Of a stretch of 64,000 nt of DNA, positions 18,617 to 37,508 are shown in pieces. Below the pieces are notes generated by a model. It ran no database searches. It was not told the origin of the DNA and worked only from the letters and a program-made list of their open reading frames with translations. Made by a program: the position numbers and the translations under genes. Source of the DNA: Desulfovibrio sp. JC010 (GTDB lineage: Bacteria > Desulfobacterota > Desulfovibrionia > Desulfovibrionales > Desulfovibrionaceae). The stretch lies in contig NZ_VOIQ01000015.1 of NCBI RefSeq assembly GCF_010470675.1, forward strand, positions 1-64,000. The letters are read 5' to 3'. Within the stretch, counting starts at the first letter, position 1. Each line of letters starts with the position of its first letter.

Positions 18617-19126
18617 ATGATAGAAGATTTTCATTGTACCCATTCATCGTTCAGAGAAAATATCCTTGAACACATGCTTATAGGCGAAGTTACCAGAACC
18701 CTATGGAAGAGGGGATACCCAGCAACTGAAGTCATGAGAACAGAAGTCGATGCAATGGGATACGATATTGTGTTCTCAGTCAATGGTTATACTCGGTTTG
18801 TTCAACTCAAGGCTAGAAAAGCTGGGGCTAGAGGAACTTCTTTGTCTGTAAATAGAAGTCTGGAGAATAAGCACGGCGGTTGCGTCATCGTGATTCTTTG
18901 CGATGAAGTTGATTTAGCATTGAAAGGATTTCGCTGGTTCGGGAATAGACCGGATGAAAAGATGACAGAGTTGCCTGATAAAGTAGCAAAACGTCCTACA
19001 GCAAACAGCCAAGGTGTTAAACCAGAATTGAAATCCAAGTGTTTGATGAATTGGGGATTATTTCAGCCAATAGCAGATGTAGAAGAATTGGTTGATGTTA
19101 TGTTTCCTGATTTGGTTTTGACTTGA
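18617..19126 (+). CDS. PD-(D/E)XK-like putative endonuclease
   Basis: Protein of 169 residues. Residues 32-65 read EVMRTEVDAMGYDIVFSVNGYTRFVQLKARKAG: an acidic residue, then D in GYDI, and QLKA, which fits the E-x(n)-D-x(n)-(E/Q)xK core of PD-(D/E)XK nucleases. The rest is not recognised. It is convergent with the Dam gene and lies in a defence-type cluster. It may be a restriction-like nuclease or a sensor that kept only the fold. Start at 18617 has a weak ribosome site. Confidence 0.45.
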   Translation: MIEDFHCTHSSFRENILEHMLIGEVTRTLWKRGYPATEVMRTEVDAMGYDIVFSVNGYTRFVQLKARKAGARGTSLSVNRSLENKHGGCVIVILCDEVDLALKGFRWFGNRPDEKMTELPDKVAKRPTANSQGVKPELKSKCLMNWGLFQPIADVEELVDVMFPDLVLT

Positions 19127-19194: not shown

Positions 19195-20004
19195 TTATTG
19201 TGTGAAGTTAATCCGATACATAGCTTCAGTTGTCTTTTTCCGTTTGTCAGCCTTACCTGCAAGTACACTGTATCGAGAGAGCTGTTTATATTCCCCTATG
19301 TCGTCATAAAGGTCATGAATAGATTTATGGTCAGCATTGCAAATAACAATGTAGGCTCCTCGATTGGCCGCTCTTATTATTGCATTGTGTAGTCTGACTT
19401 GGTCTGCCCAGCTAAATATACTTTCATTATATTTGATAAAGTTGTTGTTATTGTGTTTGACTGTGTATGGAGGATCGACAAAAACGAAGTCATCTTGACC
19501 GGCTTCGTCAATGGTGTTTTCAAAATCTGAACAGCGAATTTCTGAATTTTGAAGTACTGTGGATGCTCCAATGAAGTCATCTGTATCAAGGATTACTTTA
19601 TCTTTTGTTCCAATTGGGACATTGAATTCTCCCTTCTTGTTGACTCTGTATAGTCCATTCCAACATGTCCTGTTCAGATACAAGAAACGAGCCGCTCTCT
19701 CCAGTGGTGTGTCATAGGTGGTTGCTCGTTGGATATAATAGTATTCTTTTGTATGCTGCTGTTGATGCGTTCCCATCATTCTGCTCAAATGGTCGGGGAA
19801 ATCACGTAGTACGCTATAGAATTCTATGAGATCAGAGTTTATATCAGATATGATAGATTGCACTGGTGAAAGTTGAAAATATATAGCAGCTCCTCCGAGG
19901 AAAGGCTCAATAAATCGTTGATATGTTGGTGGCGGATTAAGCTGGTCTTGAGAAATCAGCCAGCGTTTACCGCCTGCCCATTTTAAAAAGGGAACTATCG
20001 GCAT
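19195..20004 (-). CDS. D12-class DNA adenine-N6 methyltransferase (Dam-like)
   Basis: Methylase of 269 residues. Motif I is FLKWAGGKRWLI at the N-terminus with FIEPFLGGAAIYFQL, and motif IV is VFVDPPYTVKHNNN; the central part RAARFLYLNRTCWNGLYRVNKKGEFNVPIG is the Dam target-recognition signature that fits GATC-type enzymes. It overlaps the 3' end of the nuclease-DGQHR gene by 38 bases, so the two are one transcription and probably functional unit. Solitary Dam proteins are common in elements, but the tight coupling suggests a modification partner. Confidence 0.85.
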   Translation of the reverse strand: MPIVPFLKWAGGKRWLISQDQLNPPPTYQRFIEPFLGGAAIYFQLSPVQSIISDINSDLIEFYSVLRDFPDHLSRMMGTHQQQHTKEYYYIQRATTYDTPLERAARFLYLNRTCWNGLYRVNKKGEFNVPIGTKDKVILDTDDFIGASTVLQNSEIRCSDFENTIDEAGQDDFVFVDPPYTVKHNNNNFIKYNESIFSWADQVRLHNAIIRAANRGAYIVICNADHKSIHDLYDDIGEYKQLSRYSVLAGKADKRKKTTEAMYRINFTQ

Positions 20005-22348
20005 AACCTTTCCATTCAGCTGTTGCAGTTTTCAGCCGGGAGTAAAATTCTTGTTTTAACCATTCTATAAAAGCGTAATTCTCTTCGGAATAAACTCTTA
20101 AGCTACTTTTATGTCCGGGAGTTCTTCTTAGCTCATTGAACGATATTAGCCAGTTTAAATAATACTTTTTACCTTTTTGCTCATCAGGCATCTGGATGTT
20201 GAAAACAGACTCAAAATGAGGCCAGTTGTTTTTCTGTTTTGCTATGTCTTTAAGGTCAACTAGGTCTAAATAGGCTTCCTTTGGGAGTTGATCCTGTGGA
20301 CCATAGTCTTGCTGCTTTTTATACGCCTTTTCTTTTGCTCTACGGCTGTCAATGCCTTCTGCCCAATATGCTTTTTCGCCAGAAGCTAATTCTTTTTCAC
20401 CATATACACGTTTAAGGTTCGCTATGACGTAATCCGTTATGTCTTCGGTTAACTTGATGATGTCCAAGTGAGCAGCTTCTGCACGCCCATCTTTTTTTTG
20501 TTGGAGGTAGTCTCTAAAATCTTCGGAGCCAAAGTCTTCATATTCACTCGCCATCAATTCGCACAACCGCCAGAAGTATTCCTTAACCCCTCCCTCACCA
20601 AATTTCCTTGAGAAGTCGTCCTTAATTTGTTCGTCAGTAGCCGTCTTAATGTATTCTCGAATTGTTTTGGTCGACTCAATGAGGATGGTTGCTATCTCAT
20701 CTGGAGGTAAGGAGTCAAATTCAATTTCATCTTTAAATCCCCGATAACGAATAATTTCGTCAATCAAAAGCAGGTGTGCTCTGATTCCGGGGTTTACGGC
20801 AATGTAAGAAGGTGGCTCGTTGGCCCAGCGGTCAGGGTGAGCATTGCAAACTTCCTCGAAATAGAGATTGAGAATTTGCGTGGCTTTTTTGAATGTTTCG
20901 TTGTCTACTCCAGCCGCAAGGGGGCCGGGCACAAGTACATTGTGGACTACTTTTCCAACGAGACCAGAGCGAGTCAGTCCATTAACAAATTCAGGTATGG
21001 TAAGGTTTCTGTTGCCCCCTCCTGTCACACCCTCAATTTTAAATCGGTTGAAAAATACACTCGACGGATCTGAGTTTAGTATTTTTACAATACCCGAGGA
21101 TAGCGCAGAGATTCTTTCTTTAGGGACGGCTGAGTCAATTTTGAGATCAGATAGCAAACTAACCAGAATACTTTTGGGAACGCTTTTTTGTTTGTTATTG
21201 ATTGTGATAAAGAGGTCAGCTTCTTTGTGTGTTGATAGCTTTTCGAAAGCCAAAACAAAAAGACTTTGATCCAAATATTCATCGTCAAGATAAGAATAAC
21301 CATATAATCTATGCTGGCCGTCAATGATCCAAGCACTTCGATATTTTTTGGGCAGTGTAATCCAGCCAAACTTGATGTTTGGATCTGTGTTTTGCTTGCT
21401 TGAAATAGCGTCCCAGCGTGGTGATTCGATCAGGTTTACTAATATATTGGTTGGGAAGTATCCGCCTTTTTCAATGTATTTGCCAATCTCCTTGATGCGA
21501 CTTGGAGTGATCATTCTTTGATATGCGGGCCGTCCGTCAGGGTGGTTCAGGGCTTGGTGGTTTACGAAGGCAATTTTTAACAAGGCTCTTGGAGTGCAAA
21601 CGAAACTGTAAAAGGTCTCGCCTCCAATTTTGCCTTTGATGGCAGGGAGAACAACGTTGTCTAAGCCATGAATTTTTTGCCCTTTCAAGAACTCGGAAAG
21701 AATTTGATATTTTCCTGCTGGGCCCATGTGTTTCAAAAAGGCTTCAAAATAATCAAGTTCGTTTTCAGTAACGATAATAATGTTGCCAGATGTTGCCCGT
21801 TCAATATCCGGCTTAGACCATATAATGTTATTGGTGATATACATCCATATGATTTTTAAAGCTGGTTTACGCCCATATTTGCTATGTAGAGCGTTCCGAA
21901 TTGGCTGTTGTAGATAAATGCTCTCATGAATATCTTTTTGAAGAGTTCGGCGTCCACGTTTTTTTTTGGATTTGCATTCAACGATTACAACCGTTTCATC
22001 ATCTTTGGCAAAGACGTCAATTTGTTTTTTGCCGATTGACCCATCTTCTCTTTCGTAACTGATTACGAATCGATCATCATTTAGTATGGGATAGCCCATT
22101 TTATAAAATAAGGTCCATGCACGATCTTCAAGTAAGACATCATGTCTTTTGTCTTTTTTGATTCGGTATGTGTTTTTATTTGTTCGCTGGATTTCCCAGT
22201 CTTTTTCAAGTCGGCCTTCCAGTTCATGTTTTTTTATAGTCTCTGAATGGTATTTCAGCTTTTTCCTTTTATAAGCTGTGATCCGTTCACTTTTTTTCTC
22301 AAGCAGGGGGGATAAATCAATTTTGGGTGCTTTAATGGGCATAATCAA
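19967..22348 (-). CDS. Nuclease-DGQHR fusion protein
   Basis: Large protein of 793 residues. Residues about 85-175 contain a PD-(D/E)XK-type core: YEREDGSIGKKQIDVFAK, DDETVVIVECKSKKK. The middle (about 275-400) is a DndB/DGQHR domain: YQRMITPSRIKEIGKYIEKGGYFPTNILV followed by SAWIIDGQHRLYGYS. The C-terminal 350 residues are helical and unassigned. DGQHR proteins belong to the ParB/sulfiredoxin-like group and regulate or serve DNA modification systems (DndB, DpdB). A nuclease fused to DGQHR and overlapping a Dam gene is not an arrangement I know as a named system. No dnd or dpd gene is nearby. Confidence 0.75.
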   Translation of the reverse strand: MIMPIKAPKIDLSPLLEKKSERITAYKRKKLKYHSETIKKHELEGRLEKDWEIQRTNKNTYRIKKDKRHDVLLEDRAWTLFYKMGYPILNDDRFVISYEREDGSIGKKQIDVFAKDDETVVIVECKSKKKRGRRTLQKDIHESIYLQQPIRNALHSKYGRKPALKIIWMYITNNIIWSKPDIERATSGNIIIVTENELDYFEAFLKHMGPAGKYQILSEFLKGQKIHGLDNVVLPAIKGKIGGETFYSFVCTPRALLKIAFVNHQALNHPDGRPAYQRMITPSRIKEIGKYIEKGGYFPTNILVNLIESPRWDAISSKQNTDPNIKFGWITLPKKYRSAWIIDGQHRLYGYSYLDDEYLDQSLFVLAFEKLSTHKEADLFITINNKQKSVPKSILVSLLSDLKIDSAVPKERISALSSGIVKILNSDPSSVFFNRFKIEGVTGGGNRNLTIPEFVNGLTRSGLVGKVVHNVLVPGPLAAGVDNETFKKATQILNLYFEEVCNAHPDRWANEPPSYIAVNPGIRAHLLLIDEIIRYRGFKDEIEFDSLPPDEIATILIESTKTIREYIKTATDEQIKDDFSRKFGEGGVKEYFWRLCELMASEYEDFGSEDFRDYLQQKKDGRAEAAHLDIIKLTEDITDYVIANLKRVYGEKELASGEKAYWAEGIDSRRAKEKAYKKQQDYGPQDQLPKEAYLDLVDLKDIAKQKNNWPHFESVFNIQMPDEQKGKKYYLNWLISFNELRRTPGHKSSLRVYSEENYAFIEWLKQEFYSRLKTATAEWKGYADSSLFKMGRR

Positions 22349-23898: not shown

Positions 23899-23913
23899 AT
23901 TTTCTCCAATTTT

Positions 23914-24209
23914 GAGCGGTTTGGATAGCGATCTTTTAAGGTTTGTAACTATTTAATTACACAATATTTTGTGTCTTTTCAATGTTGCTGATTTTTCAAA
24001 AAATGAGCGGTTTGAATAGCGATCATTTTGCCCAAGGAAATTCTGCGTGTTAATCAACAACCGATAGAACTATTTTTAGCTATATTTGTAGAAAAAACGA
24101 GCGTTTTAAATAGCGATCTTTTGATGTGTGTAACCTATTGATATAGCGATATCTTGGTTATGGATTAGAGCCTCTGACTTTATCTTTTTGAGCGGTTTGC
24201 ATAGCGATT
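23914..24209. repeat. Four 20-bp repeats, about 91-94 bp apart
   Basis: Consensus GAGCGGTTTGNATAGCGATC at 23914-23933, 24005-24024, 24099-24118 (GAGCGTTTTAAATAGCGATC) and 24190-24209. Start-to-start distances are 91, 94 and 91 bp; the 71-74-bp intervals do not resemble each other. They fill the whole 331-base gap between fic and the HigA-like gene, and the first ends 10 bases from the fic ribosome site. They could be operators, leader RNA elements or recombination sites; spacers are too long and too few for a CRISPR array. Confidence 0.8.
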
Positions 24210-24229
24210 TTCAAGCAGAAAAATAAAGG

Positions 24230-24559: not shown

Positions 24560-25819
24560 TTAATCCATAGTCAGCAGGTCCACAGCCCCCTGCGAATAAT
24601 CAGGGCTGAGGTGGGCGTAGCGCATGGTCATGTTGATGGTCTTATGGCGCATCAAAGTCTTGATTCTGTAAATGTCCACTCCGGCAATAGCCAGCCAAGA
24701 GGCGAAAGTATGGCGCAGGGAATGGAATACGATTCGCTGGCTCTTGGCGGTAGCGAATTTATTCAGTTTCAATTCGTCGGCAATGATCTTGAATTGCTTT
24801 GAAAGGTTCTCTTTCTTTTTGCCCCCGGAGAGGGGAGGGAAGATCAGCGCATCGTCGGATGCTTCCCTGCGGCGCATGAGTACATCAAGGGCCACTGAGT
24901 TGAGAGGAATAGTCCCGCCCGGCTTTTGGTTGTTACTGATGAGTCTCACTGTCAGTGATTTTCCATAGAAGTTGACATCATGCCATTCAGCACGTTGAAT
25001 TTCGCCAAGCCTCAGTCCTGTGTGCAGGGATAGCAGCATTGCATCATGCAGATCCTGCCAGCTTTGACGCCAGAGATCCCTTTCAGATTTTTCAGCTTTC
25101 TTCAGTGTCGCAGACATTAAGAGTTTGGCTTCTTCTTTGGTGAGGAAACGTTCTCTTTGGTTCTTGTTGCCGATCTGGGGCAGTTCTATGTGGTCGATGG
25201 GGGATTGCCCTGAAAAAATCACGACGTCTTTAACAATCGTTGATGCTGCACGATTAAATACAGATCGTATAATCGCCATGTGGTGAAGCACGGTCGCCTC
25301 AGCCAGCTTAGCGTCGTAGAGCGAATCCATGAATTCCTGAAGGAGGTCTGGAGTAATCGCAGACAGGGGAAATCCGCCAAGAAATGGATGAATGCGCTTG
25401 TCGGCTCTTTTTACATCATCCGTCCATGTCTTTCTTTTTTTGCGGTCACGTTTCCACGGAATATAGTATTGCTCGAAGAATTCTTGGAAGGTTATTTCTT
25501 TGATCTGCTCTTTGGCTTCGAGAGCTGCGGCCTCAGCTTTTTTTCTGGCATGATGTTCTTTGAGTGCGGCAAATGTGTTGGGATCTTCCCCTGACTTATA
25601 ATTCTGCTGAAGCTTGTGTCTGAGGTCGGCGATTTCGGCTACTTTCCAACCTTCTGAGGACCATCCGATACCTTCTTCTAAGGTCTTGCCTTGGCGGTAC
25701 CAGCGAACCGAGAAATATTTGTCAGGATTCCCTTTGTATTTTCGAGTCGCATGTTCATAATATCGGACGCCTCTGGTGCTGTTAATTTTTTTCCATTCGG
25801 TGGTATTACGTGCTTTCAT
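24560..25819 (-). CDS. int: Tyrosine integrase of element A
   Basis: Integrase of 419 residues. The catalytic residues are in HTGLRLGEI (Arg I), HSLRHTFASWLAIAG (His-Leu-Arg-His), LMRHKTINM and MRYAHLSPD (Tyr). The N-terminal 100 residues form an arm-binding domain and 110-220 the core-binding domain. It stands 127 bases from the 93-bp att repeat at 25946, with the gene reading away from it, the normal arrangement at the right end of a tRNA-integrated element. Confidence 0.9.
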   Translation of the reverse strand: MKARNTTEWKKINSTRGVRYYEHATRKYKGNPDKYFSVRWYRQGKTLEEGIGWSSEGWKVAEIADLRHKLQQNYKSGEDPNTFAALKEHHARKKAEAAALEAKEQIKEITFQEFFEQYYIPWKRDRKKRKTWTDDVKRADKRIHPFLGGFPLSAITPDLLQEFMDSLYDAKLAEATVLHHMAIIRSVFNRAASTIVKDVVIFSGQSPIDHIELPQIGNKNQRERFLTKEEAKLLMSATLKKAEKSERDLWRQSWQDLHDAMLLSLHTGLRLGEIQRAEWHDVNFYGKSLTVRLISNNQKPGGTIPLNSVALDVLMRRREASDDALIFPPLSGGKKKENLSKQFKIIADELKLNKFATAKSQRIVFHSLRHTFASWLAIAGVDIYRIKTLMRHKTINMTMRYAHLSPDYSQGAVDLLTMD

Positions 25820-25945: not shown

Positions 25946-26038
25946 ACTCTTAATCCGTTGGTTCAAGGTTCAAGTCCTTGGTGGCCTACCACAGTAAATA
26001 CAGGGTGTTAGACGTTTAGTCTAGCACCCTTTTACTTT
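25946..26038 (+). mobile_element. Attachment site copy 1 (tRNA-Lys(CUU) 3' half plus terminator)
   Basis: This 93-bp sequence is identical to 35675-35767. It begins in the anticodon loop (ACTCTTAATCC; anticodon CTT), continues through the T-arm (CAAGG, TTCAAGT, CCTTG) to CCA at 25989-25991, and ends in the terminator hairpin GGGTGTTAGAC/GTCTAGCACCC. The 5' half of a tRNA is not upstream, so this is not a working tRNA gene. It is attR of element A and attL of element B. Confidence 0.85.
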
Positions 26039-26051
26039 TTCAAAATCCGCC

Positions 26052-26133
26052 TTCCCCATACTCTTCCCCATAAAATCGAAAAAAGTGAAAAGAGTCTGAT
26101 TAAGCTCAAATTTTCCCACTTTTCGTTCCCCAT
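26052..26133. repeat. TTCCCCAT arm-type repeats, left end of element B
   Basis: TTCCCCAT occurs at 26052-26059, 26064-26071 and 26126-26133. The first two are 12 bp apart and followed by AAAATC; the right end has the same pair at 35537 and 35549. Probably binding sites for integrase B. Confidence 0.5.
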
Positions 26134-26231
26134 GTTGATTCTCGAATATTTCCCTTATTTGCCTCGTGATTTGTAAATAAAATATAGCTCGGTTAAAATG
26201 GACTAGTCTAGATAAAAATATGGAGCCAAGC

Positions 26232-27281
26232 ATGAGTGATATCCAAAATGAGAAAAATATAAAATCGGAAATTGAAAGCTCTGTTCAAGATCAGGCTGGA
26301 GGCAAGGAACCGGATGAAAAGAAGGAGGAAAAGCCCATACCTCCTTTCGTTACTTCCTGCCTGAAACTGAAACGTGGGCTGCTGGATAAAGCTGTCAGTA
26401 TCTTCCTTTTACTGATCGGGATTTATTTGGGATGCCTGATTTTCATCGTCCTGCCGACAAAGCCGGAAATAGGGATTCTGCTCAGAACTTTTGGCATGAC
26501 CCTTTTTGTTGGGCTGTTTCTATGGCTGATGAAGCGTTTGGTTGTCTTTTGGGTCAAAGATGGGACGTCGCTTTTTAAGGCCGGGGTTGAGAATAGAATA
26601 TCTGCCGCTGATCTGCGCAAACGGTGGGATCGGGAAGTTGGTCACGATTTTTTGAATGTAATTTTTGAAACCAGACTTAAAGTTTTCCTCCGTTCTGAAA
26701 GGAATCCTGAACGGGCCCTGATTGCAAGAAGTTTCTATTCTCAGTTCATGCCGGACAAAGAGCGCATAGCCATACTTTTCAATGAAGGCTGCTTTTTTGA
26801 TCTGGATGAAGTCCATAGAGCGGAAGAAGCCTGCCCCAGACTGAAGCCCGTTGATTATGCAAGTATTGAAGCTCTCAGATCAAAAGTCGATGAATTGCAA
26901 AATGAGCTGGAAATGGAGTTGAGACTGAAGGCTGAATTGCCGGAGGTCAATGTTGAGGCTTTTGATCTAAAGATTAAAGAGCTGGAAAAAGAACTGGAAG
27001 ATGCGCGAACCCTGAAGGCCAGATTGACGAAGTCTGAGAAAAAGCTGGAGGGCGCACGTAAAGAAGGATTCTTCTTCGCCAATATGATCCTTGAAATGGT
27101 CGCTGACCCGACAGCGAAAAAGCAGTTCCCGCACAAAGAATATAAAGCCATCGCTGATAAAGTCATAACCAAGGACTACATCCAGAAACTGGAAATGGTC
27201 AGACCAGCCAATTCTGTTATCGAAGAATTTCGGGAAAACCTTCCTGCCGAGTTCAGGCACGAGGGCAATAAACCAAAATAA
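26232..27281 (+). CDS. Membrane-anchored coiled-coil protein
   Basis: Protein of 349 residues from ATG 26232 (GGAG 8 bases upstream). The first 35 residues are acidic and disordered; two membrane segments follow (about 50-75, FLLLIGIYLGCLIFIVLP, and 80-102), then a soluble part with a coiled coil (about 215-290, rich in Glu and Lys heptads). No family is recognised. It is the first gene of element B and has no obvious operon partner. Confidence 0.6.
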   Translation: MSDIQNEKNIKSEIESSVQDQAGGKEPDEKKEEKPIPPFVTSCLKLKRGLLDKAVSIFLLLIGIYLGCLIFIVLPTKPEIGILLRTFGMTLFVGLFLWLMKRLVVFWVKDGTSLFKAGVENRISAADLRKRWDREVGHDFLNVIFETRLKVFLRSERNPERALIARSFYSQFMPDKERIAILFNEGCFFDLDEVHRAEEACPRLKPVDYASIEALRSKVDELQNELEMELRLKAELPEVNVEAFDLKIKELEKELEDARTLKARLTKSEKKLEGARKEGFFFANMILEMVADPTAKKQFPHKEYKAIADKVITKDYIQKLEMVRPANSVIEEFRENLPAEFRHEGNKPK

Positions 27282-27289
27282 AAACCACG

Positions 27290-27347
27290 GGACAAAATGG
27301 ACAATATGGACAAAATTCGATTTCTGTCCATTTTGTCCATATTGTCC
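27290..27347. repeat. GGACAAWAT iteron-like palindrome
   Basis: Three direct 9-bp units (GGACAAAAT, GGACAATAT, GGACAAAAT) start at 27290, 27299 and 27308. The last two pair perfectly over 18 bp (27299-27316) with 27330-27347 on the other side of a 13-base loop. There is no T-run. Repeats of this kind serve as replication initiator or repressor sites; it is followed by about 290 bases without a gene that hold only a 7-bp inverted repeat (GTTCTGT/ACAGAAC, 27511-27533). Confidence 0.6.
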
Positions 27348-27643
27348 GGGTTAATTCAATTCTCTTTTTCCTCCCTTCAGACCGCCTTTTCGAGTTTTAA
27401 TCCTGCCTAGAAACAACTTCTGTTTATCAATTTCAGACTTTTTTCAGAATTTGAACCTTTCTAAATTCAATTTTCATTACCTGCTGATAATATTGATATT
27501 TTACCATCAGGTTCTGTCGTGTTCTCACAGAACTTTGTGGTCCCAGCACACAATTTGTTCCCTTCCTGATGGTTTTGCGGGCCAGTTAAACGTGGTTGCC
27601 TTGCGTCGAAGAAAAAACACCTCCAACCAACAAGGAGAAATTG

Positions 27644-27853
27644 ATGCAAGGGCTATTAAGCACAAAAGAAGCTGCTGAAAAATTGGGACTCAGTCCCGGA
27701 ACTCTTGAAGTATGGCGTTGTCTGGGAAAAGGACCGCGCTATATCAAAATCGGCAGGCGCGTGGGGTACGATTTAAAAGATCTGGATGCCTACGTGGAAT
27801 CCTGCAAGGTCGTGCCGCTTGATGAAATGTCTGACCTGCCGAGGAACAGATGA
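27644..27853 (+). CDS. AlpA/MerR-like helix-turn-helix protein (excisionase type)
   Basis: Protein of 69 residues starting at ATG 27644 after AAGGAG. LLSTKEAAEKLGLSPGTLEVWRCLGKGPRYIKIGRRVGYDLKDLDAYVES is a HTH_17 domain as in AlpA and Xis proteins. Such proteins activate integrase genes or direct excision. The stop overlaps the start of the DUF3987 gene (ATGA), giving one operon through the mob genes. Confidence 0.75.
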   Translation: MQGLLSTKEAAEKLGLSPGTLEVWRCLGKGPRYIKIGRRVGYDLKDLDAYVESCKVVPLDEMSDLPRNR

Positions 27854-29484
27854 GCGCATCCGGCACAGACATCCTATCTCTGTTCGGAAACAAGGCCCCT
27901 GTACCATTGGGGCCGAAGTTTCCGCCGTCCTTATTCTCTGTTCAACTGCCCCCGGTGCTGGCTGATTACTGCTTTGAGCTGAGCGAATCGCTACAGGTGC
28001 CCTACGAGGTTGTGCTCTGCAATCTCTTTGGCGTCCTATCAACCGTAGCGCAGCGAAGGTTCCATGTGCGGATTAAAGAAGGTTACGAGGAATCTTTGAA
28101 CCTGTACCTGCTCTCGCCGCTGCCGCCCGGAGAACGAAAAAGCGCGGTGACTCATGCTGCGCGAAGGCCGCTCAACGGCTGGGAAAAGGAGCAGGAGAAG
28201 ATCATCGAACCGCAGGCGCAGCAGGCGCGTTCAAAACGTCTGACCCTTGAACGGGCCATCGAGCACCGCCGTAACTTGGCAGCCAAGGCCAAGAATTCCG
28301 AAAGCCGGGACAGCATCCTGCAAGAGATCCGCGAACTGGAAGACGAAATGCCGGAAATGGTCACCGTCCCGCGTCTGCTGGCCGATGACATCACCCCGGA
28401 ATGTCTGGCCCTGCTCATGGAGCAGCAGAACGAATGCATGTCCATCATTGAGCCTGAAGGCGGGATCTTCGGAACTTTTGCAGGTCGCTACAGCCGCATG
28501 CCTAACCTTGATCTGATCTTGAAATCCTTCAGCGGTGAGCCGTGCCGGGTGGATCGTAAACACGGTCAGTCCATCGGGTTGAATCATCCCTTGCTGACCA
28601 TCTGCGTGACTCCCCAGCCGGACGTTTTGCGGGGCATGGCTGAGAACCCTGAATTTCGGGGGCGCGGTTTCTTGGCCCGCTTCCTGTTTTTCTTCGGGCA
28701 AAGCAGGCTGGGGTTTCGAGTGGCCGAGCCTCCTCAGATTTCGTCACAGGCGGAACGCGCTTTCCTTGGGCGAATCGAACTTCTGCTTTCCCTGAGAAGC
28801 AATCCTGAAATGAATGAGAGCGGCCAAGCCTTATTGCTCAGTGCCGGGGCTTATGAATCGTGGAAGAATTTCTTCCTGCTCATTGAAGGAGAATTGCGAC
28901 CGGGGAGCAGTCTGGAAAATATGACCGATTGGGCGGGCAAGGTTCCGGGACAGGTTGCCCGTCTGGCCGGGTTGCTGCATCTGGTTTCGGCGCAACAGGT
29001 TGAATCGAAGATTGAGCAGTCGATCATGGTCTCCGCAACTGAACTGGGTAAGAAGCTCGTTCACCATGCCCGCTACGCATTTCACGACATGGGTTGTGAT
29101 GAGCTGACTTCCTGCGCGCAAGCAATTTTGAAATGGATCACTGACCGGAAAATTGAGCTGTTCACAGGCCGGGAATGTCAGCGTGCGATCAGGGGACGCT
29201 TCCCGAAAAAGAGTCAGGTCGAGCAGGGGCTGAACATGCTTTTGGAGTACGGATATATCGTTGCGGTCCCGGTTCAATCGTCCGGTCCGGGGCGGCCTCC
29301 GAGTCCGAATTATCGGGTGCATCCGGCTGTACATGGTTCGGAATCAGTCCCGTCATCGAATCTTAGCCAGCCTACCCACTGTGACACTGTGCGCTGCGCT
29401 ACAGATGTCCCCGTGGGGGCTGGCGAGGGAGGCCGGCCTCCCTTCGATCCCTCCTTTAACGGCAGGGAAGAGGTGGGCGTATGA
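27850..29484 (+). CDS. DUF3987-type replication protein
   Basis: Protein of 544 residues related to DUF3987/YfjI proteins of plasmids and elements, which are RepA- or primase-helicase-like. Features are FPPSLFSVQLPPVLADYCFELSESLQVP at the N-terminus, the P-loop-like SPLPPGERKSAVTHAA (in place of GxxxxGKS, with RKS), a central coiled stretch (115-165), and IEPEGGIFGTFAGRYS, GRGFLARFLFF. The C-terminal 100 residues look like a winged helix. It probably supports replication of the excised circle. Confidence 0.65.
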   Translation: MSASGTDILSLFGNKAPVPLGPKFPPSLFSVQLPPVLADYCFELSESLQVPYEVVLCNLFGVLSTVAQRRFHVRIKEGYEESLNLYLLSPLPPGERKSAVTHAARRPLNGWEKEQEKIIEPQAQQARSKRLTLERAIEHRRNLAAKAKNSESRDSILQEIRELEDEMPEMVTVPRLLADDITPECLALLMEQQNECMSIIEPEGGIFGTFAGRYSRMPNLDLILKSFSGEPCRVDRKHGQSIGLNHPLLTICVTPQPDVLRGMAENPEFRGRGFLARFLFFFGQSRLGFRVAEPPQISSQAERAFLGRIELLLSLRSNPEMNESGQALLLSAGAYESWKNFFLLIEGELRPGSSLENMTDWAGKVPGQVARLAGLLHLVSAQQVESKIEQSIMVSATELGKKLVHHARYAFHDMGCDELTSCAQAILKWITDRKIELFTGRECQRAIRGRFPKKSQVEQGLNMLLEYGYIVAVPVQSSGPGRPPSPNYRVHPAVHGSESVPSSNLSQPTHCDTVRCATDVPVGAGEGGRPPFDPSFNGREEVGV

Positions 29485-29777
29485 GCGCATCCCGCACAGC
29501 TTGGTTGAACGTCCGGGTCACGGTTGATGAGAAAAATAGTGTTGTGGAAGAAGCCGCAAATCGGGGCATGACCATGGGCGATTTCATGCGTCAGCTTCTG
29601 GGCAAAAGACGGGTCCGCAAAACCAGACGCGAGCGCGAAAAGTTGCTCCAGCTTGCCCGCATCGGGAATAATCTGAATCAGCTCGCCCGCTGGGCAAATA
29701 CATATAAAAGCGGTGCCGATTCCGTGCTTATTCTGGCCGAACTGGCCGCCATTGAGAGGGAACTGAAATGTATATGA
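29481..29777 (+). CDS. mobC: MobC-like relaxosome protein
   Basis: Basic protein of 98 residues. The N-terminal NVRVTVDEKNSVVEEAANRGMTMGDFMRQLLGKR looks like a ribbon-helix-helix, and the C-terminal LLQLARIGNNLNQLARWAN is the signature of the MobC family. MobC opens the DNA around nic for the relaxase. Start overlaps the stop of the DUF3987 gene, and its end overlaps the relaxase start by 10 bases. Confidence 0.85.
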   Translation: MSASRTAWLNVRVTVDEKNSVVEEAANRGMTMGDFMRQLLGKRRVRKTRREREKLLQLARIGNNLNQLARWANTYKSGADSVLILAELAAIERELKCI

Positions 29778-31219
29778 AGGTTTTCGCTCATGGCCGGGGC
29801 AACGGTGCCAAGGCTATCAACTATGTAATTGATCCCCTTCGTAAGGGCCGTGAAAAATCACCGCCGCAGGTTTTGCGCGGTGACCCTGAAGCCGTGCAGC
29901 GGGTGATCGGTTCAACTGACCGGGTCTGGAAATACACTTCCGGGGTGCTTTCATGGGCTCCGCAGGACAAGGTTTCCCCGCAGCTTGAAAAGGAAGTCAT
30001 GGATGACTTTGAGCGAGTTGCTTTTGCTGGCCTTGAGCCGGATCAATATTCGATCCTTTGGGTGCGGCATAGTCATGCCGGACATCATGAGATGCATTTC
30101 ATCATCCCGCGCACGGAGCTGCGCAGTGACAAGGCCATGAATCCCTGCCCGCCTAATTGGCATAAGCAATATGACGTCTGGCGTGACCTTTGGAATGAAC
30201 GGAAGCAGTGGGCAAGGCCGGACGAGCTGAAGCGGTCCCGGCTGCTGCAACTGGGCAAGGACATTCATTCACCCAAGGGCAAACAACTGCACGATTTCAG
30301 GAAAACCGTAACTGACTTCCTCGCTCAAGGCATAGCTGACGGTCTGCACAAGGACCGTGCAGACCTCATCAAGGCTTTGGAGGAGGTCGGGCTTTCCGTG
30401 GTCCGGCAGGGCAAGAAATACATCACTTTGGAGTTGCCCGAAGACAAAAAACGAGTCCGATTGAAAGGAGGAATATATGAATTATCTTGGAGAGTTGAGC
30501 GAGAAATTGCAAAAGCGGATGAGCTCGCAGTCTCAGGAAGTGGAGCAGATCGCCAGCAGCGCATTGCAGGACTTGAGCGGGAACTTGCTGAAATTCGCCG
30601 AAAGCGAGCTGAATTCCATCACAGCCGATATGGACGACCACATCCAGAAGCTACGCAAAAAGCAGTCCGCGATTTCGGCCAGCTACTGGAAACAAAACAT
30701 CTTGGCGAATCTCATCTCCGCATTGCTGCTGCTCATAGTCGCGGTCTGCATAACCGGATTTTACGGCTGGAGAATCAAAGAAAGCCACGCGGAGCTGGCA
30801 AGGATCAGCGCACAGATAGAGAGCCAGAAGAAGAAAATAAGCGTGTTCACCAAATGGGGAATCGAAGCGCACCAGAGCAAAACCCAGCGGTATCTGGCCT
30901 TTCCCACAGGAACCCAGCTGGAAATAAGAGAGACCAAGGGCGGCCAGCCAGCCGTTTTATTGCGGAGATAGATCATGAACGAATTATTGAAGAGCTTATC
31001 GGAGGCCCTAGCCCGAATGGAACAGGAGCAGTCCCGTCGCCTGAAAGGGCAGGACCTGAAAATCGCCCGGCAAAGCAGCCGCATCGCGGAGCTGGAAAAG
31101 GAAGTCCAAGGCTGCCGGGACTTACAGAGCGAATTGGAAGATGTTTTGCGGAAGCTTACGAGGTTGCGCGAGTGAGGGGGAAGCGAATAACGTTATCTCG
31201 TACTGGAATTGCTAGGTGA
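29768..31219 (+). CDS. mobA: Relaxase (MobA/TraI type)
   Basis: Mobilization relaxase of 483 residues. The N-terminal 180 residues hold HGRGNGAKAINYVID and the metal-binding HSHAGHHEMHFIIPR motif (H-x-x-x-H-x-x-H type), which together form the MOB relaxase catalytic region. Residues 220-483 are very charged and of low complexity, because the same DNA encodes the mobB- and mobD-like genes in another frame (30477-31175). This overlap is known from ColE1- and RSF1010-type mob regions. It nicks oriT and pilots the strand; oriT was not located. Confidence 0.85.
   Translation: MYMKVFAHGRGNGAKAINYVIDPLRKGREKSPPQVLRGDPEAVQRVIGSTDRVWKYTSGVLSWAPQDKVSPQLEKEVMDDFERVAFAGLEPDQYSILWVRHSHAGHHEMHFIIPRTELRSDKAMNPCPPNWHKQYDVWRDLWNERKQWARPDELKRSRLLQLGKDIHSPKGKQLHDFRKTVTDFLAQGIADGLHKDRADLIKALEEVGLSVVRQGKKYITLELPEDKKRVRLKGGIYELSWRVEREIAKADELAVSGSGADRQQRIAGLERELAEIRRKRAEFHHSRYGRPHPEATQKAVRDFGQLLETKHLGESHLRIAAAHSRGLHNRILRLENQRKPRGAGKDQRTDREPEEENKRVHQMGNRSAPEQNPAVSGLSHRNPAGNKRDQGRPASRFIAEIDHERIIEELIGGPSPNGTGAVPSPERAGPENRPAKQPHRGAGKGSPRLPGLTERIGRCFAEAYEVARVRGKRITLSRTGIAR
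30477..30971 (+). CDS. Nested MobB-like membrane protein
   Basis: Protein of 164 residues encoded inside the relaxase gene in the +1 frame. AAAGGAGG (30464-30471) stands ideally before ATG 30477. The protein has a helical N-terminal part, a membrane segment at about 80-102 (NILANLISALLLLIVAVCITGFYGW), and a coiled C-terminal part. MbeB/MobB proteins of ColE1 and RSF1010 are likewise nested in the relaxase gene and link the relaxase to the membrane. Confidence 0.75.
   Translation: MNYLGELSEKLQKRMSSQSQEVEQIASSALQDLSGNLLKFAESELNSITADMDDHIQKLRKKQSAISASYWKQNILANLISALLLLIVAVCITGFYGWRIKESHAELARISAQIESQKKKISVFTKWGIEAHQSKTQRYLAFPTGTQLEIRETKGGQPAVLLRR
30975..31175 (+). CDS. Nested MobD-like coiled-coil protein
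   Basis: Protein of 66 residues in the same frame as the nested mobB-like gene, three bases after its stop, and also inside the relaxase gene. The sequence LLKSLSEALARMEQEQSRRL and the following heptads make one long coiled coil, as in MbeD/MobD of ColE1-type plasmids. Confidence 0.6.
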   Translation: MNELLKSLSEALARMEQEQSRRLKGQDLKIARQSSRIAELEKEVQGCRDLQSELEDVLRKLTRLRE

Positions 31220-31233
31220 TTTTAAAATGTTTA

Positions 31234-31279
31234 ATAAGGTTAGCTCAATTATGGGCTAACAGCTAACCTTATGCTTTTG
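31234..31279. terminator. 12-bp stem terminator between mob operon and HNH gene
   Basis: ATAAGGTTAGCT (31234-31245) and AGCTAACCTTAT (31261-31272) are perfectly complementary across a 15-base loop, followed by a short T-rich stretch. It stands between convergent genes. Confidence 0.6.
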
Positions 31280-31314
31280 TTGAGCTATATAAGCTATGTG
31301 AACTATGAGCAGAG

Positions 31315-32082
31315 TTAAATTTTATTTTTTCCACAGAAAGAAATCTCTTCCCTGTGATATTTAACGTGGTTATTGCATATGGTATGCAATAATTTTAGCG
31401 TTTTTCCATCAAGAGGGTCGTTTTTGATCGCTGATTTAATTCTGTAGTTGTTTTTGCTGCCTTCTAGCCATAATACACCATGATCAAATTGTTTGTGGTG
31501 GTTAGGACAAAGAATTATCATATTCGAATTGTTGTCAGGTCCATTAGCATGTTCTCCAAGAGGTTTTATGTGTGCAGCCTCCGAATAGTATGTGCCCTCA
31601 GATACTTTTAGTTGAATACCGCAGAACATACATTTGTCGTGGTATTGGTGTTTTAGGGCACTAACTATCTGTTGATTTCTGGCTTGGGCATTCACTTGCG
31701 AGATTCGTCTGCCGACGCTTCCATCTGGTTCTTCATGGGTAATCTCGATAATAGTAGGTTTTTCTTGTAAGTTTTCATAAATACGGAAGGCTCTTCTGTC
31801 TTTTGGATGTTCCCCCAAATTGCATGAAACTATTAGTCTTCCTGAATAGTTATTTAATGCCTCGATCTCTTGGTAGGAATATTTGTATATAGTCCTTCCT
31901 GTTTCCTTTCGTTCTTCAACAGGGGGCCACTGCATCTCAAAGACTCCAGCAAATAGCCAATTGTTTTTTTGGGCAAGCCTAATCAAGGAAATAATAAATT
32001 TAACATCTTGTGTTATATTTCTTGTGTTTGTTTGGCGCGCTTGCCAGTCTCCAAATTTTCTTGGATTTTCGGGGTTGAACAC
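31315..32082 (-). CDS. HNH endonuclease-domain protein, start uncertain
   Basis: At least 255 residues. The C-terminal part is an HNH domain: CMFCGIQLKV, then YSEAAHIKPLGEHANGPDNNSNMIILCPNHHKQFDHG (residues about 150-207), with the Cys pair and the His-Asn-His triad. The given start is GTG 32082 without a ribosome site. The frame stays open 25 codons further to a TAG at 32158-32160 but offers no ATG, GTG or TTG, so the 5' end may be lost or start at a rare codon. Probably a nuclease of a defence or accessory system. Confidence 0.6.
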   Translation of the reverse strand: MFNPENPRKFGDWQARQTNTRNITQDVKFIISLIRLAQKNNWLFAGVFEMQWPPVEERKETGRTIYKYSYQEIEALNNYSGRLIVSCNLGEHPKDRRAFRIYENLQEKPTIIEITHEEPDGSVGRRISQVNAQARNQQIVSALKHQYHDKCMFCGIQLKVSEGTYYSEAAHIKPLGEHANGPDNNSNMIILCPNHHKQFDHGVLWLEGSKNNYRIKSAIKNDPLDGKTLKLLHTICNNHVKYHREEISFCGKNKI

Positions 32083-32294
32083 ATCTAATGGATTTTGTTC
32101 ACCTGTTTTTTCGTCTTTGTCAGAGCGGGCAAAATGGATTCTTGTTTTTTTTGAGGTCTAGTGAAGGAAATTTTTGTTTGATTAATGTGATTAACGATGT
32201 CTTATGGTAATGTTTTTGAGATAAATTCATTTTTAAATTCTCCAATTTTGCCAATTAACCAGAGATTTTGTCATATTTCGTGGAGCAATATCCC

Positions 32295-33002
32295 TCAGAT
32301 AGAATGGTGCGCCCACGACCAATCTGTACACAATTTTATATCTAACACGTCAATTTCTTCTTTAATTTTTTGTTTTGGTTGATTGCTATCGCAAAAATCT
32401 TTTGTATTTGATGTATGAAAAATCAAATTTTTGTTGAATCCATTTTTTCTTAATTGGCGTGATAATTCGAGGCAATGCTCGTAAATAATGCAGTCTTTAA
32501 TGCTACCTTTTCGAGATGGTGGCAAATTTTGCGCAACTCTAAAGCTTGCCTTTACAATAAGGCTATCAACTTGATAAATATGAATACTATTACTTAAAAT
32601 TTTATCACAAGTAGGCTTTAGAATATTTTCAATATTATTCAATATATCTATCGTGTCCAATGGAACCGAGGGAGATCCTGGAGAAAGCAAGGCATTTAAA
32701 ACATGTATGTTTTGACCTAAAGTTTTTATATGTTTTGAAAGTTCATCTTTTGTTTTAGCTACATTGTCTTGGTACTCTAACGGAACATTAGGAAGTAATA
32801 TTATTTGAATATTATTGTTTAATGCTAAATCTATAGTCTTTTGCGCAGATGTTAAATACGAACTTGCTCTTGTTGGTTCATCGATACGAAAAGGAAGCCT
32901 AATAATGTCTAAGATTGCGCAGGTATCTAAGAATAGCACAGGAACAGGAGTGCTAAGCAATAAGGATACTGTTTCATCAATGCTGAGCAGATTATACGTC
33001 AT
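32295..33002 (-). CDS. PIN-domain-like protein
   Basis: Protein of 235 residues with a PIN-type ribonuclease layout: PVLFLDTCAILDIIR near residue 21 (first Asp), IILLPNVPLEYQDN with Glu, SRKGSIKDCIIYEHCLELSR near residue 170 (Asp), and FHTSNTKDFCDSN near the end. It resembles the DUF4935 group of PIN proteins. It overlaps the upstream gene by 11 bases, which suggests a two-gene system, either toxin-antitoxin or defence. Confidence 0.6.
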   Translation of the reverse strand: MTYNLLSIDETVSLLLSTPVPVLFLDTCAILDIIRLPFRIDEPTRASSYLTSAQKTIDLALNNNIQIILLPNVPLEYQDNVAKTKDELSKHIKTLGQNIHVLNALLSPGSPSVPLDTIDILNNIENILKPTCDKILSNSIHIYQVDSLIVKASFRVAQNLPPSRKGSIKDCIIYEHCLELSRQLRKNGFNKNLIFHTSNTKDFCDSNQPKQKIKEEIDVLDIKLCTDWSWAHHSI

Positions 33003-33645
33003 GGCTATGTTCTACATAATATTTTAGAAGATCTATTCCTGTTTCGTATTCAATTGCTAGGTTTGAAGCTATGTCGTTTGGCCAATCCTCTTCCTCAATC
33101 AGCCAGCGTTCAAGGCGATCTGTGCTAAGATTTTCATTATTTCGGACAATAGAAATAATAAATGCAAACCATCTTTTCTGGTCTAGAGGATGTGACGATC
33201 CTGTTGATTTATTAGCGGCACGAGAGAACTTTAATATTTTATCGTAGCTGGCTGGGGAAATCCAATTGTCCATGCTTTGGGTGTCAGATGTTAGTTTAGT
33301 TTTGATAGCTTTTTGTTCACATAGACCTTGTATGTTTTCTTTATAAAAATCTGACAAAATATTATTGTATTCATTGGTCGATAGCTTGCCAATTTTCTTT
33401 GGCACAACGTTGCTTGCGTAAATAATATTTTCATCTTTTCTTGCGAAAACAATTACAGCAGCTTTGTTTGGAAGTTCATTGTCGTTTGAGAAAAAATATG
33501 CATGTTCGTTTAAGTCTTTTTTGAATTCTTTTTCTTTCTCTTTTTCTCGTACCCAACCGTTTTGTAGATTGATTTCCACTTCATGGAAAAAGTCATCTGT
33601 GGAGTTTTCAGTGATATGTATATAAAGCTCTTTGAAGACTTTCAT
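32992..33645 (-). CDS. Partner of the PIN-domain protein, unknown family
   Basis: Protein of 217 residues from ATG 33645, preceded by GAGGAG. It is acidic and helical, with DFFHEVEINLQNGWVREKEKEKEFKKDL near the N-terminus and a C-terminal RLERWLIEEEDWPNDIASNLAIEYETGIDLLKYY. No known domain is recognised. Its 3' end overlaps the PIN gene start, so the two are made together. It could be the antitoxin or a target-recognition subunit. Confidence 0.5.
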   Translation of the reverse strand: MKVFKELYIHITENSTDDFFHEVEINLQNGWVREKEKEKEFKKDLNEHAYFFSNDNELPNKAAVIVFARKDENIIYASNVVPKKIGKLSTNEYNNILSDFYKENIQGLCEQKAIKTKLTSDTQSMDNWISPASYDKILKFSRAANKSTGSSHPLDQKRWFAFIISIVRNNENLSTDRLERWLIEEEDWPNDIASNLAIEYETGIDLLKYYVEHSHDV

Positions 33646-33777
33646 ATTTGCTCCTCTAATTATGGAGATACAATTAATATTAAACATATGATGTATATCA
33701 AATATGATTGTCGAAGTCTAATTTAGAGTCTTATACTTTGTGGGTGTTTTTTTGTTCGATTGGATGAAGTCCCAAAA

Positions 33778-33813
33778 AAATCCCCCGCAGAGCATGAGCC
33801 TTGCGGGGGATTT
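33778..33813 (-). terminator. Terminator of the DUF1640-like gene
   Basis: AAATCCCCCGC (33778-33788) pairs with GCGGGGGATTT (33803-33813); on the minus strand a T-run follows. It ends the transcript of the 33860-34204 gene. Confidence 0.8.
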
Positions 33814-33859
33814 ACGTGCATTTTATCAATTATTCCAAAGCATGAAGCTGAATCGGATT

Positions 33860-34204
33860 TTAACCCAGCAACTTGACCAAAGCAGCAACCGTGGCCGCCT
33901 GAACCATGAGCATTCCAGCCATCCATTTGATGGTTTCAGATTTGGCGGCTTGAACTTCAGCCCTGATCTTGTTTTCCAAATTGGATTCAATGTTTTCCAC
34001 TTTGGTTTCAAGCCGGGTCATATCAGCCTTCAAGTTGCCCTCTACTTTATAAAGGTCAGCTCTGGTGACAAGTTCCTTTTTAGCTTCTTCAAGTTCTTGC
34101 TTGGATTTTTCTTCGTGCTTTTCAAGAACGTGGGCAATAACCTCTGCGGCTTCTTCTCCCACAGCTTTTTCAAGCTTTTTGGCATCATCAAAAAGTAAAA
34201 CCAT
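33860..34204 (-). CDS. DUF1640-like coiled-coil membrane protein
   Basis: Protein of 114 residues: a coiled coil from about 8 to 85 (KKLEKAVGEEAAEVIAHVLEKHEEKSKQ, then TRADLYKVEGNLKADMTRLETKVENIESNLENK) and one C-terminal membrane segment (IKWMAGMLMVQAATVAALVKLL). This is the layout of the DUF1640 (CCDC90-like) family common in phages and elements. A good AAGGAGA site precedes the ATG. Function unknown. Confidence 0.65.
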   Translation of the reverse strand: MVLLFDDAKKLEKAVGEEAAEVIAHVLEKHEEKSKQELEEAKKELVTRADLYKVEGNLKADMTRLETKVENIESNLENKIRAEVQAAKSETIKWMAGMLMVQAATVAALVKLLG

Positions 34205-34296
34205 TTCAGTCTCCTTATATATGAACTTTAACCACGATTGCAGGGCAGGTCAACGTGGGGGATTTTAATTTTTGGCAGCTTGAGTGGAAGACCCGC

Positions 34297-35442: not shown

Positions 35443-35536
35443 GACCTTACCTTTTTTACCTGTTTGTGGGGAAGAGCAATTTTTGCTCGAATTTCCCATA
35501 ATTCATCCGTGGGATTCCGCAGGGGTGGGGCGTGTA

Positions 35537-35556
35537 TTCCCCATGCTATTCCCCAT
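35537..35556. repeat. TTCCCCAT arm-type repeats, right end of element B
   Basis: TTCCCCAT at 35537-35544 and 35549-35556, 12 bp apart and followed by AAAATC-like sequence, matching the pair at the left end (26052, 26064). Confidence 0.5.
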
Positions 35557-35674
35557 AAAAATCCCTAAATAAGGTAATTTTTGCTTAAATCATATAAGGT
35601 AGGTTAAAGAGTGTTGTTCTTTGAATTAAACAACTTATGGCTTCGTTAAGGCGGGATAAATTCGGCAGACCGGT

Positions 35675-37496: not shown

Positions 37497-37508
37497 GGAG
37501 AAACTGAT

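What the first reader, a model, noticed from the sequence alone, without database searches (positions are those of the whole stretch)
19195..22348. Nuclease-DGQHR fusion coupled to a Dam methylase: candidate new defence system
A 793-residue protein joins a PD-(D/E)XK-like nuclease core (IDVF, VECKS) with a DndB-type DGQHR domain and overlaps by 38 bases a D12-class adenine methylase. DGQHR proteins are known from phosphorothioate and 7-deazaguanine systems, neither of which is present. The pair could be a restriction-modification system in which DGQHR senses or controls a modification. It sits in an ICE beside other defence-like genes.
Basis: partly seen in the sequence, partly recalled or inferred. 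Interest (0 to 1): 0.75.

Follow-up and report, generated by a model that had tools for sequence, protein, structure and literature searches.

The report
Dam-paired nuclease-DGQHR candidate defence operon
A mobile gene pair couples a DNA-marking methylase to a protein that looks like a DNA cutter, an NTP-driven switch and a probable RNA cutter in one chain, and relatives suggest that marker and weapon have been exchanged repeatedly between such candidate anti-phage systems.

Summary
The pair is real: a 793-aa protein (19967-22348, -) overlaps a Dam-family methylase (19195-20004, -) by 38 bases. Of 24 loci found with this architecture, 18 have a Dam-family gene next door and 6 a radical-SAM-like gene within 2 kb. 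Starting from Dam, 36 of 42 viral-contig loci with Dam at least 46% identical hold a DGQHR gene, against 0 of 24 with a more distant Dam (1 of 24 in Desulfobacterota genomes); partners then include this nuclease, a membrane protein or an unknown 440-aa protein. Dam and effector do not co-diverge. Best reading: a modification-gated defence system in which methylation marks self, the DGQHR domain reads DNA state with NTP turnover, and nuclease/HEPN activity is released on unmarked DNA. Activity, target site and defence are untested. The closest proven analogue is PD-lambda-5. New variant of a known kind; the recurrent Dam-DGQHR partnership with exchanged effectors is the interesting part.

The parts
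19967..22348 (-). 793-aa effector: PD-(D/E)XK-like nuclease + DGQHR + HEPN-like domains
21659..22216 (-). PD-(D/E)XK-like nuclease domain (residues about 45-230; D111, E124, K126)
   Evidence: Foldseek: Cdn1, VC1899, Card1 at E 9e-4 to 8e-3, AF1548 0.09, McrC about 1; residue conservation
20753..21643 (-). DGQHR/DndB domain (TIGR03187); DGQHR motif at 21308-21322
   Evidence: motif identical in 24 of 24 fusion rows
20009..20542 (-). Probable Swt1-like HEPN domain (residues about 603-780); N738-x2-R741-x4-H746
   Evidence: motif in 19 of 19 rows; PF18731 in 6 of 17 members scanned, not the window member, and in L201 and L202; fold searches negative
19195..20004 (-). Dam-family D12-class N6-adenine methyltransferase (269 aa), DPPY at 19465-19476
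19967..20004 (-). 38-base overlap of the two coding sequences (translational coupling is an inference)
   Evidence: overlaps also in the 13 relatives with 3' Dam measured
24560..25819 (-). tyrosine integrase, probably of the element that carries the pair
25946..26038 (+). 93-bp direct repeat (tRNA-Lys 3' part), right end of the carrying element; second copy 35675-35767; third copy beside an intact tRNA-Lys gene on contig C21

Best explanation
A mobile, modification-gated defence operon. The Dam-family enzyme methylates adenines in host DNA (inferred; GATC or a related site is the likely target because its nearest solved relatives are DpnM and E. coli Dam, whose site is recalled). The large protein scans DNA; its DGQHR domain, of the ParB/Srx superfamily, binds and turns over a nucleotide and couples the methylation state of DNA to activation (inferred from SspE, whose DGQQR motif does this). 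Unmethylated invader DNA then releases the PD-(D/E)XK nuclease, and probably the HEPN RNase-like domain as a second, growth-arresting effector. Shown here: domain content, conserved active-site residues, gene overlap, repeated co-occurrence, exchange of partners, carriage on mobile elements. Inferred: methylation site, NTP dependence, polarity (cutting unmethylated rather than methylated DNA), RNase activity, anti-phage effect.
For: 24 loci of the fusion: Dam next door in 18, a radical-SAM-like gene within 2 kb in the other 6. Dam 3' and overlapping in the window (38 nt) and in all 13 relatives with 3' Dam measured (1-50 nt, taking the first possible start of each Dam frame); L036 has Dam 5' overlapping by 7 nt and L037 Dam 5' with a 3-nt gap. 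Reverse test: DGQHR in 36 of 42 viral loci with Dam at least 46% identical, 0 of 24 with Dam at most 38.5%. In the 18 Dam-paired fusions D111 18, E124 17, K126 18; DPPY 16 of 16 Dams compared. Nuclease fold: Cdn1, VC1899, Card1 first. HEPN: motif 19 of 19, PF18731. Carried by prophages (terminase gene in the L031 locus; tail genes in 12 of 42 Dam loci), plasmids and this island. Sporadic: own genome only among 17 of its family. Mechanism precedent: SspE, where recognition raises GTP hydrolysis through DGQQR and licenses the nuclease (PMC13251355, passages). Function precedent: PD-lambda-5 (PMC9519451, passages), whose relatives here are a ParB-motif protein next to a methylase that looks D12-class by eye.
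Against: Dam and fusion distances are uncorrelated over 16 pairs (Spearman 0.01; 2184 of 5000 permutations as high), which is not what a tightly matched specificity pair gives unless all these Dams share one site. The same Dam clade goes with a membrane protein and a DGQHR protein without this nuclease in 21 of 42 viral loci, so direct DNA restriction need not be the common output. One of 24 more distant Dams (32-42%) in Desulfobacterota genomes, L143 at 35.5%, also has a DGQHR gene beside it, so the link is not confined to one clade. L059 has Q for E124. Among the 50 rows shown, no ParB/Srx structure appeared in the fold search of the full model, and no HEPN structure in those of the C-terminal model. 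No experiment.
Confidence: 0.6

Rival explanations
1. Abortive-infection or toxin-antitoxin logic: Dam methylation (or the Dam protein) keeps the effector silent; when a phage degrades host DNA, inhibits methylation or brings unmethylated DNA, the HEPN/nuclease parts act on the host cell. DNA restriction of the invader is secondary.
For: HEPN-like domain with invariant motif; cassettes with the same Dam clade and a DGQHR protein carry a multi-TM protein instead of the nuclease in 21 of 42 loci; K126 of the nuclease is lost in 5 of 6 radical-SAM-paired copies while the R-x4-H motif stays in 6 of 6; PD-lambda-5 is said by its authors to appear to be an RM+Abi system.
Against: In the 18 Dam-paired copies the nuclease residues are kept but for one E to Q change, so DNA cutting seems to be under selection there.
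Confidence: 0.25
2. The DGQHR protein is a regulator or helper of the methylase (as proposed for DndB and DpdB in their systems) and the complex serves DNA modification; the nuclease domain is accessory. In prophages the set would be anti-restriction rather than defence.
For: DndB and DpdB work with modification enzymes (PMC10853773, PMC12839542, passages); many relatives lie in viral contigs beside phage genes; 31 of the 36 DGQHR-bearing Dam loci lack the nuclease fusion.
Against: A conserved nuclease core fused to DGQHR and a HEPN motif are hard to explain in a pure modification complex; Dam enzymes need no helper (general knowledge).
Confidence: 0.1
3. Mobile-element maintenance module: post-segregational killing or exclusion of competing elements through Dam and effector, rather than defence against phage.
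For: Carried by an integrase element, plasmids and prophages.
Against: Not excluded; overlaps with the best explanation, since restriction-modification systems do both (general knowledge).
Confidence: 0.05

Closest known systems
PD-lambda-5 (Vassallo et al. 2022, PMC9519451; passages read)
   Same: Mobile anti-phage system with a methyltransferase, said by its authors to appear to be a compacted prophage RM+Abi system. Relatives of its component A found here (L205, L206) are ParB-motif proteins next to a methylase that looks D12-class (motifs read by eye).
   Different: The window effector gives no PD-Lambda-5_A hit at E 0.1; its ParB-type domain is the DGQHR version, with a nuclease domain in front. 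The Dam matches PD-Lambda-5_B only distantly (45 bits, E 1.9e-12, below twelve MTase_II and oMTase models).
SspABCD-SspE and GmrSD
   Same: ParB/Srx-type domain with a DGQ[Q/H]R motif in one chain with a nuclease; NTP turnover couples recognition of modification to cutting in SspE (PMC13251355, passages). The likeness of the DGQQR and DGQHR motifs is noted in PMC4619093 (passages).
   Different: No DUF262 or DUF1524 match in the window protein at E 0.1; PD-(D/E)XK instead of HNH; partner is a Dam, not phosphorothioation or glucosylation.
Dnd and Dpd systems (DndB, DpdB)
   Same: DGQHR domain acting beside a DNA-modification enzyme. A link of DndB-like and HEPN-bearing AIPR proteins was already drawn in PMC3506569 (passages).
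   Different: Scores far below the DndB (25.6 against 328) and DpdB (72.6 against 300) cut-offs; DndC and DpdA absent from the genome.
Type II restriction-modification with Dam-like methylases (DpnII)
   Same: Nuclease-like gene next to a Dam/DpnM-like methylase; DpnM (2dpm) is the best solved relative.
   Different: The effector is a three-domain protein with DGQHR and HEPN-like parts, and partners have been exchanged.

Membership tests
Type II restriction-modification | Endonuclease and methylase genes adjacent | tested here: met
   Overlap in the window and relatives; that the effector is an endonuclease is predicted, not shown
Type II restriction-modification | Both enzymes recognise the same site; methylation blocks cutting | not testable with these tools
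   Needs biochemistry or methylome data
Type II restriction-modification | Cleavage without NTP | not testable with these tools
   DGQHR domain suggests an NTP step (inference)
Dnd phosphorothioation | DndC present | tested here: not met
   No TIGR03183 match in the genome
Dnd phosphorothioation | DndB equivalog score (328 bits) | tested here: not met
   25.6 bits
Dpd 7-deazaguanine | DpdA present | tested here: not met
   No NF041059 match in the genome
Dpd 7-deazaguanine | DpdB equivalog score (300 bits) | tested here: not met
   72.6 bits
GmrSD/SspE type effectors | DUF262 plus DUF1524/HNH | tested here: not met
   Neither in the Pfam scan at E 0.1
PD-lambda-5 | Component A model match | tested here: not met
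   No match at E 0.1 for the window effector; the ParB-HEPN protein L202 matches at 2.5e-4
PD-lambda-5 | D12 adenine methylase beside a ParB-superfamily protein | tested here: met
   that DGQHR belongs to the ParB superfamily is from PMC4619093 and a weak PHROG hit (1.6e-5)
HEPN RNases (C-terminal domain) | R-x4-6-H motif in a helical domain | tested here: met
   R741-x4-H746 in 19 of 19 rows; helical models; motif definition recalled
HEPN RNases (C-terminal domain) | Match to a HEPN family model or fold | tested here: inconclusive
   PF18731 in 6 of 17 at E up to 1, best 7.6e-4, window member none; L202 9.6e-6, 26.3 bits against cut-off 27.5; no HEPN structure among the 50 rows shown of each fold search
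PD-(D/E)XK nucleases (N-terminal domain) | D...ExK core in the fold | tested here: met

The most novel reading that the evidence does not exclude
A modular family of epigenetically guarded defence systems: one Dam clade acts as a portable self-mark, DGQHR proteins as NTP-driven readers of that mark, and effectors (PD-(D/E)XK-HEPN, multi-TM protein, 440-aa unknown) are exchanged, as is the marking enzyme itself: in part of the effector family a B12-binding-like radical-SAM enzyme, mostly with a GHKL-like ATPase, replaces Dam and may write a new, unknown DNA mark.
Probability: 0.35. Interest if true: 0.85.

Novelty: new variant of a known kind. Interest (0 to 1): 0.7.

Why it matters
DGQHR proteins occur beside several DNA-modification systems, yet what they do there is disputed. 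A simple two-gene version with a common adenine methylase gives a system in which 'what does DGQHR read, and does it spend NTP to do so' can be tested directly. The exchange of Dam for a radical-SAM-like enzyme beside the same effector points to a possible unknown DNA modification.

Tried and rejected
Other genes as part of the unit: the window's nuclease-like 169-aa ORF, Fic, HigA-like antitoxin, integrase, HNH and one more ORF were compared with the 24 fetched stretches of the 23 relatives; the only hit was a 62-residue Fic match in L200, so they were left out. Flanks differ in length and some are short.

Tight co-evolution of Dam and effector: tested and not found. Excluding L036/L037 gives Spearman 0.18, 367 of 5000 permutations as high.

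Free exchange: also not the case. On the Dam tree the effector types are strongly clustered (12 changes, shuffled mean 26.2, as low in 0 of 200), and on the fusion tree the 14 loci with 3' Dam form one side of a branch. Exchange is repeated, not free. The Dam tree is a quick tree; its outgroup rows do not fall together (L136 and L157, 41%, lie inside).

HEPN by fold: two Foldseek searches of the C-terminal model found nothing convincing (best E 1.4 and 0.46); sequence-profile searches did support it. Profile searches of the PDB with the family alignments found nothing convincing.

E. coli as a natural source: one prophage-type Dam-DGQHR-TM cassette (L093) had no DNA match in the E. coli genome collection; the window pair itself was not searched there.

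Counts, rows left out: plasmid records NC_002033, NZ_CP067074 and NZ_CP072175 (same plasmid, or equal match values, as the two counted) were not counted. L013-L017 are the same loci as L060-L064. In the Dam set, L068, L071, L073, L078 and L094 are the same loci as L032, L036, L037, L031 and L033; L075/L076 and L089/L092 have identical Dam rows in the tree. L108 ends at its Dam gene. The TM seeds come from seven loci, six of them among the 25 counted. L063 and L022 are broken reading frames and L200/L201 lie on two contig ends and are taken as one gene; each was counted once. L202 (ParB plus the C-terminal domain only) was not counted as a fusion. A fold library asked for was not available.
Full report
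WHAT IS THERE. Two overlapping minus-strand genes: 19967-22348 (793 aa) and 19195-20004 (269 aa), sharing 38 bases. The small one is a Dam-family D12 adenine methylase (TIGR00571 233 bits, cut-off 114.85; PF02086) whose best solved relative is DpnM (2dpm, E 2.5e-54), then E. coli Dam (2g1p, 2.2e-29). It is the only TIGR00571 match in its genome.

The large protein has three parts. (1) Residues about 45-230: a PD-(D/E)XK-like nuclease. Pfam sees it only below threshold, but Foldseek with the AlphaFold model (mean pLDDT 82.2, pTM 0.63, 17-row alignment) ranks Cdn1 (E 9.3e-4), VC1899 and Card1 first, AF1548 sixth (0.09), McrC lower (about 1). (2) Residues 236-532: the DGQHR domain, which PMC4619093 links to the DGQQR motif and ParB/Srx fold of GmrS (passages); a weak PHROG hit names a ParB-like partition protein (1.6e-5), but no ParB structure appeared among the 50 Foldseek rows shown of 218. 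(3) Residues about 603-780: all-helical, with N738-x2-R741-x4-H746 invariant in 19 of 19 aligned rows. I took this for a Swt1-type HEPN motif before testing (note). Of 17 members scanned at E up to 1, 6 then matched PF18731 HEPN_Swt1 (best 7.6e-4) and 3 Abi_2 (best 0.015); the detached C-terminal part in L201 and the ParB-fused copy L202 match PF18731 at 4.5e-4 and 9.6e-6, both below its gathering score. The window protein itself has no Pfam match in this part, and fold searches of the C-terminal model (pLDDT 85.5) gave nothing convincing. I call it probable, not proven.

THE PAIR IS CONSERVED. I collected 24 distinct loci that encode the nuclease-DGQHR fusion, counting two broken copies (L022, L063) and one split by contig ends (L200/L201). 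Sources: Desulfobacterota genomes (own, three full-length and one split in 395; five further genomes matched through the DGQHR domain alone), one genome-contig scan (five), plasmids (two distinct), a viral-contig scan (seven of 27 loci; the other 20 are DGQHR matches without the nuclease part), the class of the Devosia genome G395 (two more in 385), and the class of the Dadabacteria genome G397 (two full-length and one split, in 57). Dam lies next door in 18 of 24: immediately 3' in 15 and 5' in 3. The other 6 (L018, L019, L022, L035, L198, L199) have instead a radical-SAM-like gene within 2 kb. That name rests on the record annotation (L018, L019), on Pfam hits below the gathering score (L018, L022, L035) and on about 40% identity to the L035 protein (L198, L199). 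Five of the 6 also have a GHKL-like ATPase gene (Pfam HATPase in L018 and L022; BLAST to the L022 protein in L198 and L199; annotated ATP-binding protein in L019, likeness by eye). None of the 24 has neither partner. Catalytic positions: in the 18 Dam-paired copies D111 18, E124 17 (Q in L059), K126 18; in the 6 radical-SAM-paired copies D111 5, E124 6, K126 1; the DGQHR motif is identical in all 24. So the nuclease core is intact where Dam is present and altered where it is not; the copies are related, so this is a trend and not a statistic.

A DAM CLADE GOES WITH DGQHR. Starting from Dam, 66 viral-contig loci were found. Identity to the window Dam falls into two groups: 42 at 46-59% and 24 at 32-38.5%. 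A DGQHR gene lies in 36 of the 42 and in 0 of the 24. In the Desulfobacterota genomes, read with short flanks, 3 of 3 loci above 50% (L133-L135) have it, and 1 of 24 at 32-42% (L143, 35.5%). Of the 36, 5 are the nuclease fusion, 6 have a DGQHR protein of about 500 aa plus an unknown protein of about 440 aa (one of these broken by an insertion, L101), and 25 have a DGQHR protein of about 390 aa, in 21 of which a small multi-TM protein was also recognised. Of the 6 without DGQHR, 3 have a HerA-type ATPase (PADLOC HerA models for L070 and L104; L096 by BLAST) and a NurA-like gene (the NurA name rests on my reading; some searches gave it no such family), 1 has a calcineurin-type phosphoesterase and an ORC-CDC6-like ATPase, 1 nothing recognisable, and 1 contig ends there. 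Among the 30 plasmid rows listed of 2485, the two distinct Dams above 50% identity (Zymomonas pZZM405, Roseateles) also sit by DGQHR genes. Twelve of the 42 loci hold phage tail genes of one type (PHROG tail protein 52 or 76; I recall them as P2 D and U), so prophages carry these sets as cargo.

PARTNERS HAVE BEEN EXCHANGED. Pairwise distances of fusion and Dam over 16 loci are uncorrelated (Spearman 0.01; 2184 of 5000 permutations as high; 0.18 and 367 of 5000 without L036/L037). On a quick Dam tree of 64 rows the effector types need 12 changes (least possible 4, shuffled mean 26.2, as low in 0 of 200), so types cluster but recur; well-supported branches alone force at least 2 changes for the fusion type and 3 for the 440-aa type. 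On the fusion tree L035 (radical SAM) is sister to L036/L037 (Dam) with SH-aLRT 100. Exchange without loss of function is easiest if all Dams of the clade methylate the same site (inference).

HOW IT LIKELY WORKS. Dam marks host DNA; the DGQHR domain senses DNA state and turns over NTP; this releases the nuclease on unmarked DNA, with the HEPN domain as a second effector. The model is SspE: recognition of phosphorothioate raises GTP hydrolysis through the DGQQR motif, which licenses the nuclease; R133A abolishes GTPase, nicking and defence (PMC13251355, passages). The polarity differs: SspE is activated by the host's mark; here the mark should protect, because Dam and nuclease share a cell. 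Shown: anatomy, conservation, linkage, exchange. Inferred: everything biochemical. The main rival is an abortive system in which Dam keeps a HEPN/nuclease toxin quiet.

KNOWN RELATIVES. PD-lambda-5 is the nearest proven system: its authors say it appears to be a compacted prophage RM+Abi system, and an mrr-deleted host was used for it (PMC9519451, passages). Relatives of its component A in 2 of 297 Desulfobacterota genomes are ParB-motif proteins next to a methylase that looks D12-class by eye (L205, L206), but the window effector does not match component A. Dnd and Dpd membership fails. Literature searches for DGQHR (6 papers held) and combinations showed me no description of this pair. I looked at passages of seven papers (PMC4619093, PMC10853773, PMC3506569, PMC12839542, PMC9519451, PMC13251355, PMC4507180); in PMC9122126 the search for methylase terms returned nothing; the others I saw only as listings. 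Most subscription journals and REBASE were not searched, so this is no proof that it is unpublished. A link between DndB-like and HEPN-bearing AIPR proteins is already in print (PMC3506569, passages).

CONTEXT. The pair lies in an element with an integrase at 24560-25819 and a right end at 25946-26038, a 93-bp copy of a tRNA-Lys 3' part; a second element with relaxase and integrase follows to 35767, and the intact tRNA-Lys with the third full copy is on contig C21; a fourth, 90% identical copy lies on C10 without a tRNA call. The left end is therefore probably outside the window, which begins at the start of its contig. None of the 16 other genomes of the same family has the fusion, as expected for horizontal transfer.

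Noticed in passing
23910-24211: Four imperfect 26-nt repeats (GAGCGGTTTGGATAGCGATC type) spaced 91-94 nt between the Fic gene and the HigA-like antitoxin gene; perhaps operator sites or an iteron-like array.
   Followed up: partly
26039-35767: Second element in tandem at the same tRNA-Lys site, with MobA/VirD2-type relaxase (29768-31219), DUF3987 protein, HNH protein and its own integrase (34297-35499).
   Followed up: partly
18617-19126: 169-aa protein that looks nuclease-like to me (only a weak NOV_C hit, E 0.088); no match in the 24 relative stretches searched.
   Followed up: partly
L202:6869-7711: A 280-aa protein joins a ParB-type motif region directly to the same Swt1-like HEPN domain; its N-terminal part matches PD-Lambda-5_A (2.5e-4).
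   Followed up: partly
L198:4882-10459, L199:3775-9346, L018, L019, L022, L035: Fusion paired with a B12-binding-like radical-SAM-like protein, mostly with a GHKL-like ATPase, in plasmids, Dadabacteria, a Desulfobacterota genome and a viral contig: possible unknown DNA modification.
   Followed up: partly
L143:1-913: A DGQHR gene beside a distant Dam (35.5% identity), the one exception to the Dam-clade rule seen.
   Followed up: no
L070, L096, L104: Dam of the same clade followed by a HerA-type ATPase and a NurA-like protein.
   Followed up: partly
L102:4977-9347: Dam of the same clade followed by a calcineurin-type phosphoesterase and an ORC-CDC6-like ATPase (PF24389).
   Followed up: no
36162-43972: FeFe-hydrogenase-like gene followed by HydE/F/G-like maturation genes and an aspartase-like gene (by eye).
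   Followed up: no
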